DNA from: Leptotrichia trevisanii DSM 22070
GTDB taxonomy: Bacteria > Fusobacteriota > Fusobacteriia > Fusobacteriales > Leptotrichiaceae
DNA: 64,000 nt
Direction: 5' to 3'
Assembly (NCBI RefSeq): GCF_000482505.1
Contig: NZ_KI519443.1
Location: forward strand, 62,001-126,000
In this document: positions 35,154-39,729 of the stretch, piece after piece
How the letters are laid out: each line of letters begins with the position of its first letter
Numbering within the stretch: position 1 is the first letter of the stretch
Position numbers and translations under genes: made by a program
The notes under the pieces: model-generated
Databases searched by the model: none
Told to the model about the DNA's origin: nothing
The model's input: the letters and a program-made list of their open reading frames with translations, nothing else

Positions 35154-35678
35154 TTATTTTTTAGGCGATAATAAAATAAATTTTTGAACCTGTTCTTTTC
35201 CATATTTTTTCTCAACTGTTGCAGTTTCTTCAAAATGGCTTGCAAATTCGTCTAATACTTTAATAGCAGATTCTGCGTGCAATCTTTCTCTACCTGTAAG
35301 TCTTAAGCTGACTTTTACCTTATGCTCCTTGGCTATAAATTTTTCAATCTGAGAAATTTTTGTTTCCTTATCATGTTCGTCAATATGAGGCTTGATTCTA
35401 ATCTCTTTAACAACGACATTTTTTTGCTTTTTCTTATTTTCCTTGTCTTTCTTCGTTTTCTCATACTTGAATTTTCCATAGTCCATAATTTTGCATACAG
35501 GCGGTGTTGCATTTGGTGAAATCTCAACTAAGTCCAGTTCTTTTTCTGCCGCAAGTGCCAATGCATCTCTAGCCGACATTACTCCAAACTGTTCTCCATC
35601 ATCACCAACAACTCTAATTTCTCTTGCCCTAATTCGCTCATTCATTCTTGGCTCATCAGATCGGTTATTTCCTCTTAT
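35154..35678 (-). CDS. infC: Translation initiation factor IF-3 with apparent AUA start
   Basis: About 174 residues. IF3 binds 30S subunits and checks start-codon pairing. [40 protein letters not shown], the Lys-rich linker and [10 protein letters not shown] are diagnostic. The only well-placed ribosome site, AGGAGG, is eight bases ahead of ATA at 35678-35676. The GTG at 35687 overlaps it and cannot use it. infC is known to use non-AUG starts (AUU in E. coli) so that IF3 represses itself, and an AUA start fits that rule. An ATG at 35645 is possible but has only a weak site. It is the first gene of the ribosomal operon. Confidence 0.92.
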
Positions 35679-35708
35679 AAAAAACACCTCCTAATTTTTT
35701 TACAATAA

Positions 35709-35735
35709 AAAAACAAGATATAAGAAACCTTGCTC
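35709..35735 (-). promoter_or_regulatory. Possible attenuator just upstream of infC
   Basis: On the minus strand a short AGCAAG/CTTGTT stem is followed by a run of seven T, about 20 bases before the infC ribosome site. The stem is weak (six pairs with a wobble). Leader attenuation by L20 is known in Firmicutes, but I cannot identify that structure here. Confidence 0.35.
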
Positions 35736-35794
35736 AATAGTTATCATATAAATAAATCCTATAACAAAATTAGTATAACAAACATACTTATTTC

Positions 35795-35824
35795 ATTATA
35801 ACATATCAAATAACTAATACCCAA
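35795..35824 (-). promoter_or_regulatory. infC: Promoter of infC-rpmI-rplT
   Basis: Minus-strand TTGGGT (35824-35819) and TATAAT (35800-35795) are 18 bases apart. This would give a leader of about 110 nt before infC. A second, perfect promoter lies further upstream at 36156-36128 but is followed by a terminator. Confidence 0.6.
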
Positions 35825-36014
35825 CTCATCCTGAAATAGAACTCATTATTCTATTTCTATTTGGAAAATCAATCCAAAATCTAAATATATTGATGGAAAG
35901 GTGAGAAACAATGTTTCTACTTCTAATTTAATTACTAAAACAGTTTATCATATTTATTTTTATTTTGCAAGGAAATTTTGAAATTTTTTTCCATTTCTTG
36001 TCCTTGACATTTTA

Positions 36015-36121
36015 TAAAAAAAATAGGCATATCTTTTGGATATACCTTCGGTAATCCTTAATGAATAAGGCTCTTAATCTTTTATTACCATTCTTTCCTT
36101 AAATAAATAAGGCTTTAATGT
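36015..36121 (-). ncRNA. Small structured RNA with consensus promoter and terminator
   Basis: A transcript of about 105 nt predicted from promoter 36156-36128 to an intrinsic terminator. The terminator stem GATATACC/GGCATATC (36046-36039 and 36033-36026) has one mismatch and is followed by eight T after TA (minus strand). Before it are a CCTTA...TAAGG hairpin, then GGTAAT pairing with ATTACC (plus coordinates 36083-36088 and 36051-36056) around a second CCTTA...TAAGG hairpin. GGATTACC and GGTATATCC can also pair in competition with the terminator. I recognise no Rfam family. It is either a stand-alone sRNA or an attenuated leader of infC. Confidence 0.55.
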
Positions 36122-36127
36122 AAATAA

Positions 36128-36156
36128 ATTATAATATACGTTAAATATTTTGTCAA
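36128..36156 (-). promoter_or_regulatory. Perfect consensus sigma-70 promoter of the small RNA
   Basis: Minus-strand TTGACA (36156-36151), a 17-base spacer and TATAAT (36133-36128): both hexamers and the spacing are consensus. It starts 27 bp after the end of the Abi_2 reading frame. Confidence 0.75.
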
Positions 36157-36182
36157 CTACATTCTTTATTTTTTGACAAAAG

Positions 36183-37124
36183 TTAATTTTTATGCCAATC
36201 ATTTGGAAAATCCATTCTCGATAAAATATCATTTATATTTACAATATTTTCTAATTTATCTTCCAAAGTTTTGATAATTAATTTTAATTTTTCTGTTAGT
36301 GCATCAAATTCTTCTTTAGAAAGACTAACTATAAAAAGTCAAGCATAAATCGTAAAGAGCTTTTGATTTCTGTTTGATGTCATATCACTAACTCTTTTTA
36401 TATTAACAGTTTCTCTCGAAGAAAATTCGTATAACCTTTCGTTATGGGCAGCAACATTTCTAAAATGAGAGCTAGCAACTAAATAAGTTCTTACAAATGA
36501 ATGAGTTATATTTGGAAGATTGCCATATTCTTCTTTATACAAATTTTTAAAATGATCGCAAATTTTATCATATACATTTTTATGTAAACAAGAATATAGT
36601 TTGCTAATATCTCCAAAAGTTAAATAGTGAATTATAATCCAAAAAGGAATATTATCTTTTGTAGTGTTATAATGTCTTATTATCATTTTTTCATTATCTT
36701 TTTTTATCTTTTTCAACGTATTCACCACCATTGAAATTTTAAGAATATTTGAATTTTTCTTTCCAGTATTGTAATTCTCTAAAAGAAGATACGAATTTTT
36801 TTTCAAAATTCCGTTTGTTTCAGAAAAATAATATGAAATAGCTGTTTTGAAAAAACTTTCAAGCAATGTCAAATTATCAAAAAATAAAATTCTCAATTCC
36901 CTATCAAAATCATGAAGACTTTTTAAATATTTAAATTTAAAATTTTCAATGTATTTATCTTTTCCTCTCAAATTTTTATTTTTTTCTAAAAAAGGAGCTT
37001 TATAAAAATTTATAATAGAATAGTAATTAAATCTTTTCAAAATAGAAATTGTATCTTTATCAATGCTCATTCTGCTTGATATAATTATTTCCTGTTCTTT
37101 GAACCTTTTAAATGGCTGATCCAC
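36183..37124 (-). pseudogene. Abi_2 (AbiD/AbiF-type) HEPN protein interrupted by one in-frame TGA
   Basis: The open frame codes 261 residues from GTG 37124 (AAGGAG six bases upstream) to TGA at 36341-36339. In the same frame it continues for 51 more codons to TAA at 36185-36183, ending SRMDFPNDWHKN, the expected Abi_2 C-terminus. The restored length, 313, is normal. Abi_2 proteins act in abortive infection. RNVAAHNERLY near residue 218 holds an R-x4-H HEPN RNase motif, and NYYSIINFYKAPF near 33 is typical of the family start. The TGA sits after the HEPN motif, so a shortened active protein is conceivable; decay, readthrough or sequencing error are alternatives. A structured RNA precedes it. 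Confidence 0.8.
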
Positions 37125-37149
37125 AAAAATCTCCTTTCCAAAATATCAG

Positions 37150-37248
37150 AAAAGCCCTCTAAACAGAGAGCCTTAATATTAATTTAAATTATAATTTCAG
37201 CCTATATCGACTTCTATTTAAGAAATCATTGATATAGTACGATCCACA
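37150..37248 (-). ncRNA. Structured leader RNA between promoter and Abi_2 gene
   Basis: About 100 nt from the promoter at 37282-37254 to a terminator-like hairpin. Main stem: CTATATC (plus 37202-37208) with GATATAG (37231-37237). Directly inside it, GACTTCT (37209-37215) pairs with AGAAATC (37221-37227) with one wobble, around a 5-base loop. The second hairpin, GCCCTCT (37154-37160) with AGAGAGC (37165-37171), has one G-U and is followed on the minus strand by TTTTCTGATATTTT. It ends 26 bases before the GTG start. The layout of promoter, RNA, attenuator and toxin is that of RNA-antitoxin systems; function is inferred. Confidence 0.55.
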
Positions 37249-37253
37249 TATTA

Positions 37254-37282
37254 TTTATAACACTTTTGTTACTTTTTGTCAA
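37254..37282 (-). promoter_or_regulatory. Promoter of the leader RNA and Abi_2 gene
   Basis: Minus-strand TTGACA (37282-37277), a 17-base spacer and TATAAA (37259-37254). It lies about 130 bp upstream of the Abi_2 start codon. Confidence 0.7.
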
Positions 37283-37407
37283 CCACATTTTTAAACTTTT
37301 TTTAATAAATCCCAAAACCTCCTCAATCCTACACTTCCTTTATTTTCTTTCTCTTCCAACCAAAAGTTCCCTATTTCAAAACCTAAAAAAATGAAAAATC
37401 ATAAAAA

Positions 37408-39729
37408 CTAAATTGTTCTAACAATACGAAAGCTGGTACGATAGAACCAAACCCATTCTCCATCCCTCCATACTCTTTCAGAAATAAATTCATCTCTACC
37501 ACAATTAAATATATTACAATTCTTTGTATCACTACGAAAAGACCCTCCTTTTAATCTATGGTTTGATACACTTTCCTCATACCTGTATGGTGTTTTTTCA
37601 GGTATATATGCATCACTAGATATATCATAACACCACTCCCAAATATTTCCACTACAATCGCAAATCCCTAATTGATTTGGTTTCTTTGTTCCTACATCAT
37701 GAGTACGATTTTCTGAATTACCATCATTCCAAGAAACTTCATCTATATTATTACTGCCTGAATACTCATAATTAAATGTCCCATCTTGTATTGCAATTTC
37801 TCCACCTCTTGCAAACCATTCCCATTCAACTTCTGTTGGCAATCTAAATCCTTCAGTTTTTCTAAAATCTGCTACATTTGGGTATTCTATTTTGCCATTT
37901 GATTGATGTATTCTTAATATACCTTCTTCTTTTCGGCTCAAGTCATAAACTGGTTTTAATCCATGTTTCTCACTCAATTTATTACAAAATTCCAAAGCAT
38001 CCCACCAAGATACGTTTTCAACTGGACGTCTTCCACCTTTAAATTCTGATGGATTATTCTCCATTACTTCCATCCACATATCTTGTGTTGTCTGATATTT
38101 ACAAACTTCTAAATTGCAAACTTCTCTTTCTTCATTAAAGAATGATGGCGTGTATTTTCCTCCATTTACTATAACCATATCTTTGAATGTCGGTCTTCCA
38201 GCTATTCTTTTACCATTTTTTATTTTTTGAGAAGCTGATTTTATTTTGAATTTTTTATAGCTCTTTTTCAAAACATCTATTTTATCAGATAAAATATTCG
38301 ATAAAGAATCTATACTTTTAGTTGCTTCTAATAAATTATTTGTTGTGATTTTCTTTTCTTCTTTATTTTCAGTTTCTAATATAAATTTATTTTCAACTGC
38401 GTTTTTAACGATTTCTTCTATATCAGCACCACAGTAGCCTTCTGTTTCTTCTGCCAGTTCTTTCAAGTTTATGTCGTCTGACATTTTTCCTCTTTTTTCA
38501 AGGTGAATTTCAAATATTCTTTCTCTTTCTTCCTCGTTAGGAAAATCTATAAAAAATACTTCATCAAATCGTCCTTTTCTTAGAAATTCTGGCGGGAAGG
38601 CTGTTATATCGTTGGCTGTTGCTACTACGAATACTGTGTTTTCTTTTTCCTGTAACCAAGTTAAAAATTGTCCAAATAGACGTTTTGTTATGTCGCTTGC
38701 TCCACCGTTTTGATCTATTCCTGCAAAGGCTTTTTCTATTTCATCTATCCATAAAATGCACGGACTTATTGATTCGGCTGTTTTTAGTGCGATTCTCATA
38801 TTATGCTCCGATTCACCAACGTATTTTCCCAAAAGTCTTCCTATATCCAGTCTTAATAATGGAACATTAAACAATCTTGCACTTGCTTTTGCTGCCAAAC
38901 TTTTACCACAGCCCGGCATTCCTACAAGCAGTACTCCTTTTGGCGTATCCACTCCAAATTTCTTGGCTTCATCCAGTCTTCTAAATACTTGTGCCTTAGA
39001 GCTTAGCCATTCTTTCAACCCTTCAAGCCCACCAATTTCTTCTATTTTTTCCTTAAAATCAATAATTTCCAAAATTGAAGACTTTTTAATTATTTGCCCC
39101 TTTTCACGAATGATTATTTGATTAGCACCTTTTGAAATAGCTCCATAATTTTCTTCTAATATCATATTTAAAATATGATCCAAATCTAACTTGGTTAAAC
39201 CTTTTAAAGAAATTGACAAATCTCCCAAATCATCCCAATATATTCGAGCATTATTTTTTTGAGCAAAATCTTGAATATATTGATTAATTGTTGTTTCATC
39301 CATAGTTTCAATATCAATTATACTTGTAAATTTTTCTAATCCTTTTGGTACATTTACATCTTCATCAACAATTATTATATTAAAATTATAATTTATATCA
39401 TTATACATTTTTTCAGCTATTTTTTTAATAAAAGCAATATTTCGTGCCTCTTTCATTTCTTCTTCCGTATTTTTTATCAATAAAAATACATTTGTTTTAA
39501 AACCAACCGAAAAAAGAATATTTAAAAAGCTATACAAATCTGCAACTTCATCACTTTTAACCTTGGTTTCAAAATTTACAGCTCCAAAGGCCCTATATTC
39601 AAAAATCGCCTTATTTTTATATTCTTTAGTCGCTTCTGTTACAATTGTGTCAACTTCCTTGTAATCTCCACTGTGTACCCAAATTATAGGTCTTCTTGCC
39701 CTTAAATACTTTGATAAATTTGTTTCCAT
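37408..39729 (-). CDS. Ycf46-like AAA+ ATPase fused to an FGE-sulfatase (C-type lectin fold) domain
   Basis: 773 residues in three parts. 1-220: RARRPIIWVHSGDYKEVD recalls the N-domain of Ycf46-type ATPases. 225-475: an AAA+ module with Walker A GMPGCGKS (270-277), Walker B ILWIDE (325-330) and FLRKGRFDEVF (382-392) carrying the arginine finger. About 515-772: a formylglycine-generating-enzyme-like domain with NVSWWDALEFCNKLS, FRLPTEVEWEWFARGG (628-643), GNIWEWCYD, GGSF (728-731) and the final SFRIVR. The canonical FGE cysteine pair right after GGS is absent; a CNIFNC pair occurs seven residues later, so ligand binding by the C-type-lectin fold is more likely than catalysis. It is the last gene after the WYL and glycine-zipper genes, 147 bp downstream. 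I know no characterised protein with this architecture. Confidence 0.85.
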   Translation of the reverse strand: METNLSKYLRARRPIIWVHSGDYKEVDTIVTEATKEYKNKAIFEYRAFGAVNFETKVKSDEVADLYSFLNILFSVGFKTNVFLLIKNTEEEMKEARNIAFIKKIAEKMYNDINYNFNIIIVDEDVNVPKGLEKFTSIIDIETMDETTINQYIQDFAQKNNARIYWDDLGDLSISLKGLTKLDLDHILNMILEENYGAISKGANQIIIREKGQIIKKSSILEIIDFKEKIEEIGGLEGLKEWLSSKAQVFRRLDEAKKFGVDTPKGVLLVGMPGCGKSLAAKASARLFNVPLLRLDIGRLLGKYVGESEHNMRIALKTAESISPCILWIDEIEKAFAGIDQNGGASDITKRLFGQFLTWLQEKENTVFVVATANDITAFPPEFLRKGRFDEVFFIDFPNEEERERIFEIHLEKRGKMSDDINLKELAEETEGYCGADIEEIVKNAVENKFILETENKEEKKITTNNLLEATKSIDSLSNILSDKIDVLKKSYKKFKIKSASQKIKNGKRIAGRPTFKDMVIVNGGKYTPSFFNEEREVCNLEVCKYQTTQDMWMEVMENNPSEFKGGRRPVENVSWWDALEFCNKLSEKHGLKPVYDLSRKEEGILRIHQSNGKIEYPNVADFRKTEGFRLPTEVEWEWFARGGEIAIQDGTFNYEYSGSNNIDEVSWNDGNSENRTHDVGTKKPNQLGICDCSGNIWEWCYDISSDAYIPEKTPYRYEESVSNHRLKGGSFRSDTKNCNIFNCGRDEFISERVWRDGEWVWFYRTSFRIVRTI

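What the first reader, a model, noticed from the sequence alone, without database searches (positions are those of the whole stretch)
36015..36156. Unknown ~105-nt RNA with perfect promoter and terminator downstream of Abi_2
TTGACA-N17-TATAAT, two CCTTA...TAAGG hairpins, a GGTAAT/ATTACC stem enclosing the second, and a terminator with eight T. GGATTACC and GGTATATCC can pair instead of the terminator stem, which hints at a switch. It is 330 bp upstream of infC and 27 bp after the Abi_2 frame, so it could be a leader attenuator, a free sRNA, or a partner of the Abi locus.
Basis: partly seen in the sequence, partly recalled or inferred. Interest (0 to 1): 0.6.

Follow-up and report, generated by a model that had tools for sequence, protein, structure and literature searches.

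The report
Orphan RNA antitoxin missing its toxin
The small RNA is probably the left-over RNA half of a poison-antidote gene pair: in sister bacteria and in unrelated bacterial viruses the same RNA sits directly in front of a MazF-type RNA-cutting toxin, which is missing here.

Summary
In detail: window 36156-36016 (-) holds a perfect sigma-70 promoter, two CCTTA..TAAGG hairpins 42 nt apart and an intrinsic terminator. A free sRNA survives.

The RNA belongs to a conserved unit: promoter, two hairpin repeats, terminator, MazF/PemK gene. A covariance model built without any sequence of this genus finds the window RNA at 73 bits, E 1.6e-12. Of 98 Fusobacteriota genomes 4 carry the toxin, all 4 with the RNA in front; of 37 viral-contig toxin loci 36 do (many near-identical). 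The window and one sister genome keep the RNA but lack the toxin.

Best reading: a toxin-less antitoxin RNA of a type III-like toxin-antitoxin system whose toxin is MazF by sequence and predicted fold, not ToxN. Antitoxin activity is inferred. No Rfam family matches. TenpN was not compared.

The parts
36128..36156 (-). Sigma-70 promoter of the RNA, TTGACA-N17-TATAAT
   Evidence: 12 of 12 matches; only exact match in the window, 0.06 expected; identical hexamers in G003, G004 and G007
36016..36121 (-). The RNA itself, about 106 nt (start inferred from the promoter): orphan copy of the RNA that precedes MazF/PemK-like genes elsewhere
   Evidence: Covariance model R1, built from 10 RNAs none of which is from this genus, matches 36120-36016 at 73 bits, E 1.6e-12; next best match in the window 15.2 bits
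36097..36112 (-). Hairpin of repeat 1, CCTTA-TTTATT-TAAGG; the 6-nt loop is the Leptotrichia form
36056..36070 (-). Hairpin of repeat 2, CCTTA-TTCAT-TAAGG; loop is TTCGT in G003, G004, G007 and most phage copies, so the window copy has one loop change. Period to repeat 1 is 42 nt
36016..36047 (-). Intrinsic terminator, stem 36047-36025 and eight U; in toxin-bearing loci it stands between RNA and toxin gene
   Evidence: the stem shows compensatory changes across homologues
36015..36016 (-). Junction where the toxin gene is missing: the terminator U-run is followed at once by ATAAAATGTCAAGGACAAG, which in G003 and G007 lies after the toxin gene
   Evidence: no toxin match in G000 or G004

Best explanation
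The RNA is an orphan antitoxin. Shown: it belongs to a conserved genetic unit made of a promoter, an RNA with two tandem hairpin repeats (period 36-42 nt; consensus AAGCCTTrTTCGTyAAGGA), an intrinsic terminator, and a gene for a 116-144-aa protein of the PemK/MazF family. In the window genome and in G004 the toxin gene is absent just after the terminator, while promoter, repeats and terminator remain. Inferred: in the intact unit most transcripts stop at the terminator and give an abundant RNA, a few read through into the toxin gene, and the hairpin repeats bind the MazF-like ribonuclease and hold it inactive, as in type III toxin-antitoxin systems; the window copy is a relic of such a unit that may still neutralise an incoming toxin of the same kind.
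For: Direct linkage: in G003 and G007 the same RNA (94% and 92% identical over the query) lies 16-17 nt before a PemK-like ORF (PF02452 E 1.5e-9 and 1.3e-9). Toxin in 4 of 98 Fusobacteriota genomes at E<=1e-6, all 4 with the RNA directly upstream. Of 37 toxin loci in viral contigs 36 have the RNA ending about 10-20 nt before the ORF. Motif-first search: of 42 viral-contig stretches with the exact 18-nt motif, 30 have two copies, always 36 nt apart; 29 of these have sequence downstream and all 29 have a PemK-like ORF there (one frame-shifted, L092). Blind model: window RNA 73 bits. Structure: 98.9% of 190 cells paired against 91.7% in shuffles, 23 double changes against 7.6, 0 of 500 shuffles as high. 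Protein: 7 of 7 members match PF02452; profile matches solved MazF/EndoA (E 2e-5 to 7.5e-4); predicted model (pLDDT 87) matches S. aureus MazF at Z 15.0, rmsd 2.4, 113 aligned. No conserved protein antitoxin: longest ORF in the RNA is 5 codons in the four Leptotrichia copies and at most 33 in any of 14 (some run off the end), and the downstream genes examined differ. The one RNA-less homologue, L120, has KYIDG where the others have KY[R/K][G/N]G.
Against: No expression, binding or toxicity data. The counts lean on near-identical Streptococcus prophages; about a dozen clearly distinct lineages carry the evidence. No significant loop-spacer pairing was found in 14 RNAs, whereas type III antitoxins solved so far are pseudoknots. 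The toxin is unlike ToxN by profile comparison. Only two repeats, and one in some copies (L122). The window copy has a changed loop in repeat 2, and its RNA is no more conserved between G000 and G004 (95.2%) than neighbouring DNA (92.5-97.7%), so there is no sign of selection on it since the toxin was lost. A pure cis role (terminator-leader that limits toxin expression) is not excluded.
Confidence: 0.72

Rival explanations
1. Cis-only attenuator: the RNA is just the terminated leader of the MazF-like gene, keeping its expression low, and has no trans activity; the window copy is a dead leader.
For: It always lies in the leader with a terminator before the ORF; no pseudoknot found; no sign of constraint after toxin loss.
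Against: Tandem repeated hairpins with a conserved loop are not needed for a plain terminator; no other antitoxin is apparent; toxin-less copies with promoter and terminator also exist in Streptococcus prophage contigs (L074, L088, L095, L107, L113, L114).
Confidence: 0.18
2. Partner RNA of the neighbouring Abi_2 (AbiD/AbiF-type HEPN) gene, as RCd22 is for AbiF of C. difficile.
For: Adjacent to Abi_2 in G000 and G004; AbiF systems do have an antitoxin ncRNA (PMC12373285: abstract and sections 7, 11 and part of 13 read).
Against: RNA without Abi_2 in G003 and G007; R1 finds it at 2 of 8 Abi_2 loci; 8 of 8 Abi_2 genes have another upstream RNA with promoter and terminator, the layout described for RCd22.
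Confidence: 0.04
3. Leader attenuator or riboswitch of infC-rpmI-rplT.
For: Same strand, about 330 bp upstream of infC, in 4 genomes; alternative pairing can be drawn.
Against: infC's own promoter-like sequence and L20-type leader lie in between and are conserved in 13 of 13, the RNA in 4 of 13; the toxin gene stands between RNA and infC in G003 and G007; the alternative pairing is window-specific.
Confidence: 0.03
4. Member of TenpIN or another already catalogued type III family that could not be compared here.
For: Architecture meets the published criteria (repeats, terminator, toxin; PMC5086642, passages read); Fusobacteria and Firmicutes are known hosts of type III loci (same paper). The 2012 catalogue (doi 10.1093/nar/gks231) is not held, and no TenpN sequence was at hand.
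Against: NCBIfam and Pfam give no type III family for any of 7 toxins, only PemK/MazF models; ToxN profile does not align; the E. rectale CptI repeat printed in PMC4627078 is a different sequence.
Confidence: 0.15

Closest known systems
Type III toxin-antitoxin systems (ToxIN, CptIN, TenpIN)
   Same: One promoter, short tandem RNA repeats (34-45 nt in published cases, 36-42 here), intrinsic terminator, endoribonuclease-fold toxin gene; mobile distribution
   Different: Toxin belongs by sequence to PF02452 (PemK/MazF) and not to ToxN; repeats are simple hairpins with a short conserved loop and no clear pseudoknot; repeat sequence unlike the ToxI repeats of eight Leptotrichiaceae ToxN loci
Type II MazEF / PemIK
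   Same: Toxin sequence family and predicted fold: S. aureus MazF at Z 15.0, PF02452
   Different: No MazE-like gene; a structured RNA takes its place
AbiF-ncRNA (RCd22, Rfam RF03085)
   Same: About 100-nt RNA with two hairpin motifs and a terminator that precedes a defence toxin
   Different: Other toxin family; the AbiF-type RNA of this locus is a separate element at about 37247-37151

Membership tests
Type III toxin-antitoxin system (class) | Tandem repeats encoding a small RNA directly upstream of the toxin gene | tested here: met
   Two hairpin repeats, period 36-42 nt, next to the toxin in 4 of 4 genomes and 36 of 37 viral-contig loci. In the window itself the toxin is absent, so the window copy is not a complete system
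Type III toxin-antitoxin system (class) | Rho-independent terminator between repeats and toxin gene | tested here: met
   Terminator hairpin with covarying stem in the alignment
Type III toxin-antitoxin system (class) | RNA neutralises the toxin by direct binding, and the toxin processes the RNA | not testable with these tools
   Needs co-expression and purification
Type III toxin-antitoxin system (class) | Antitoxin repeat forms an H-type pseudoknot | tested here: inconclusive
   Loop-spacer complementarity no better than shuffles in 14 RNAs; three-dimensional structure unknown
ToxIN family | Toxin homologous to ToxN (PF13958) | tested here: not met
   No PF13958 match at E<=1 for two toxins nor at E<=0.1 for seven; hhalign against five Leptotrichiaceae ToxN proteins: probability 0.3%, 15 columns
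CptIN family | Toxin homologous to CptN (solved as 4RMO) and CptI-like repeat | tested here: inconclusive
   Profile search of PDB sequences lists MazF/EndoA but not 4RMO at E<=1; E. rectale CptI repeat differs; fold search cannot exclude it
TenpIN family | Toxin homologous to TenpN | not tested
Type II MazEF/PemIK | Toxin of the PemK/MazF family | tested here: met
   PF02452 in 7 of 7; MazF structures by profile and by predicted fold
Type II MazEF/PemIK | Protein antitoxin gene next to the toxin | tested here: not met
   No conserved ORF in the RNA; of 10 toxin loci examined downstream, the next ORFs are mostly unrelated (infC, integrases, others; none in L119)
abiF RNA (RF03085) | Match to the Rfam model | tested here: inconclusive
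   No match at E<=10 in the window RNA nor in 13 genomes, but the model also misses the upstream Abi_2 leader RNA and rang in no control genome
abiF RNA (RF03085) | Constant association with Abi_2/AbiF genes | tested here: not met
   Absent from 6 of 8 Abi_2 loci; present in two genomes without Abi_2
L20/infC leader (RF00558) | Match to the model and position as the infC leader | tested here: not met
   The weak match (24.8 bits, gathering 58.7) is at 35928-35830, downstream of this RNA

The most novel reading that the evidence does not exclude
This is a fourth kind of RNA-antitoxin system, in which a true MazF/PemK-family ribonuclease is held by a tandem hairpin RNA instead of a MazE protein, and toxin-less copies of the RNA (here and in Streptococcus prophages) persist as trans-acting protection against incoming copies of the toxin.
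Probability: 0.35. Interest if true: 0.75.

Novelty: new variant of a known kind. Interest (0 to 1): 0.6.

Why it matters
MazF is the textbook toxin with a protein antitoxin; type III toxins share its fold but almost none of its sequence. A MazF-family toxin with a repeat RNA in the antitoxin's place would link the two classes and make the question of how a toxin changes from a protein to an RNA antitoxin directly testable. It would also reclassify phage genes now annotated as MazF-like or type II in pneumococcal and S. suis prophages, and it supplies toxin-less antitoxin RNAs that can be tested as natural anti-toxin elements.

Tried and rejected
Rfam: no match at gathering thresholds in the whole window; sub-threshold lists for 35600-36400, 35990-36170 and 37110-37420 hold only chance-level families apart from the weak L20 leader; none in seven homologous loci.

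infC leader and Abi_2 partner: considered first and dropped (see rivals). The alternative pairing (switch) was dropped because it depends on a base seen only in the window copy.

G014 (34.9 bits, E 0.0036) in the genome scan was looked at (L159): no CCTT repeats and no PemK ORF; I treat it as chance and count 6, not 7, of 98 genomes. L098 and L110 in the motif scan look like chance matches inside genes. L072 (phiARI0468-1) has a longer PemK-domain protein and no RNA match; it and the distant MazF-like genes of G002 and G007 (L064, L065) were not counted as members.

Pseudoknot search: negative. Selection on the orphan: no signal (the G000 figures are wrong because that locus was read on the wrong strand, and were redone). 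ToxN profile comparison: negative. CptN (4RMO) and ToxN chains are not among the 50 listed entries of either fold search, which does not exclude them.

Plasmid collection: no match for the G003 toxin, one weak match each for two others. Literature: eight text searches list no paper that names a PemK/MazF gene with a repeat RNA; only titles and starts of abstracts were seen for most. Papers opened: PMC12373285 (abstract, sections 7 and 11, first part of 13, passages), PMC4627078 (parts 2-3 of the text, passages), PMC5086642 and PMC5377504 (passages).

Full report
What is there. On the - strand of the window, 36156-36016, lie a perfect TTGACA-N17-TATAAT promoter, two hairpins with identical CCTTA/TAAGG stems 42 nt apart, and an intrinsic terminator with eight T. 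The promoter is the only exact match in 64 kb against 0.06 expected; the fold is better than 199 of 200 shuffles. No Rfam family reaches its threshold anywhere in the window.

Not infC, not Abi_2. In 13 genomes of the genus, infC is preceded by the same promoter-like TTGCAA-N17-TAAACT and an L20-leader-like sequence (weak RF00558 match). The RNA lies upstream of that and occurs in 4 of 13 genomes (G000, G003, G004, G007; confirmed by model). Two of these four, G003 and G007, have no Abi_2 match at E<=1e-8. All 8 Abi_2 genes of the AbiD/AbiF-like group that I aligned have their own leader RNA (GATCGTnCTA, hairpin, TAnrCTG, terminator) upstream, the layout described for RCd22 of C. difficile (PMC12373285, section 7 read). 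Model R1 finds our RNA at 2 of 8 Abi_2 loci, both at this site.

The missing partner. In G003 (Leptotrichia hongkongensis JMUB5056 by the record title) and G007 the RNA is followed, 16-17 nt after the terminator, by a PemK/MazF-like gene of 134 and 123 codons (PF02452 E about 1e-9). In G000 and G004 that gene is absent: the terminator U-run is followed directly by ATAAAATGTCAAGGACAAG, which in G003 and G007 comes after the toxin. G009 and G011, without RNA or toxin, keep the stretch that follows the toxin in G003, so loss of the toxin from a common ancestor of G000 and G004 is the simplest history (inference).

The unit is conserved far away. tblastn of the G003 protein finds 38 Streptococcus phage records, 19 with at least 80% of the query covered. 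The four with a full-length match that I opened have promoter, two exact AAGCCTTGTTCGTCAAGGA repeats, terminator and PemK-like ORF; a fifth, with a partial match, has a longer protein and no such RNA. G093 (same family) and G061 (same order) have the same layout. A motif scan of viral contigs gave 42 stretches: 30 with two copies, all 36 nt apart; 29 of the 30 have sequence downstream and all 29 have the PemK-like ORF (one frame-shifted); of the 12 with one copy, 3 have the ORF, 6 look like toxin-less copies in Streptococcus prophages (four directly before an integrase gene, one with no ORF nearby, one cut off), and 3 are another phage (L093) or chance. A profile search gave 37 toxin loci, 36 with the RNA directly upstream; the exception, L120, lies by a recombinase gene and has a changed KYRGG motif. 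Many of these loci are near-identical prophages, and several lineages are in the model's own training set; the independent weight is about a dozen lineages.

Blind test. Model R1 was built from 10 RNAs, none from the window's genus. It finds the window RNA at 73 bits, E 1.6e-12, with the next match at 15 bits. In 98 Fusobacteriota genomes it finds 7 at E<=0.01; one, G014, at 34.9 bits is rejected on inspection. Toxin in 4 of 98, RNA in 6 of 98, all toxin genomes among the RNA genomes. Pair counts support the hairpins and terminator: 98.9% of cells paired, 23 double changes against 7.6 in shuffles; most double changes are in the terminator, while the hairpin stems vary in one pair each.

The protein. 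Profile A3 matches solved MazF/EndoA proteins and not ToxN or CptN; hhalign against five Leptotrichiaceae ToxN proteins finds nothing. The AlphaFold2 model of the G003 protein (pLDDT 87) matches S. aureus MazF at Z 15.0 (rmsd 2.4, 113 aligned). The window genome itself carries two ordinary ToxN genes elsewhere; upstream regions of eight ToxN genes of this family show different repeats and no R1 match at E<=0.1.

How it most likely works. By analogy with type III systems (PMC5086642, passages): the strong promoter makes the RNA, the terminator limits read-through to the toxin gene, and the hairpin repeats bind and block the ribonuclease. The first two steps follow from anatomy; binding and inhibition are inferred. 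The published antitoxins are pseudoknots, and I found no consistent loop-spacer pairing, so the recognition probably differs. In the window only the RNA half remains; its second loop is changed (TTCAT for TTCGT) and the RNA is not more conserved between G000 and G004 than its surroundings, so decay is as likely as retained function.

Novelty. Text searches found no description of a MazF/PemK gene with such an RNA, but the main 2012 catalogue of type III loci is not held and TenpN could not be compared. I call it a new variant of a known kind.

Noticed in passing
window 37282-37151 (-): Second RNA unit, upstream of Abi_2: TTGACA-N17-TATAAA promoter, GATCGTACTA..hairpin..TAGGCTG and terminator; same motif before 8 of 8 Abi_2 genes examined in the genus, not matched by RF03085. 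Likely the AbiF-type antitoxin RNA of this genus.
   Followed up: partly
L045 (G011, upstream of infC): A copy of that Abi_2-leader RNA without an Abi_2 gene after it at the infC site: a second case of a toxin-less defence RNA at the same locus.
   Followed up: no
window 36339-37124 (-): Abi_2 gene ends at an in-frame TGA; the C-terminal codons follow in frame. G004 differs by a small insertion/substitution there and has a longer open frame; the RNVAAH (HEPN-type) motif lies before the stop.
   Followed up: partly
window 35688-36400: The stretch upstream of infC is variable between the 13 genomes (Abi_2, MazF-like gene, other ORFs), while infC's promoter and leader are constant: an insertion hotspot.
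   Followed up: partly
L074, L088, L095, L107, L113, L114: Toxin-less single-repeat copies of the RNA with promoter and terminator in Streptococcus prophage contigs; in four of the six the next ORF is an integrase.
   Followed up: partly
L010 about 1380-1470: Stretch before the RNA in G003 that resembles part of 23S rRNA (recognised from memory; cmscan of the locus at E<=0.01 listed nothing).
   Followed up: no
window 37408-39729 (-): 773-aa protein with AAA ATPase and FGE-sulfatase (formylglycine-generating) domains; its C-terminal part differs between sister genomes.
   Followed up: no
G000:C1:145483-145974 and G000:C2:149503-150009: Two ordinary ToxN genes in the window's own genome; the first has repeat arrays upstream.
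   Followed up: no
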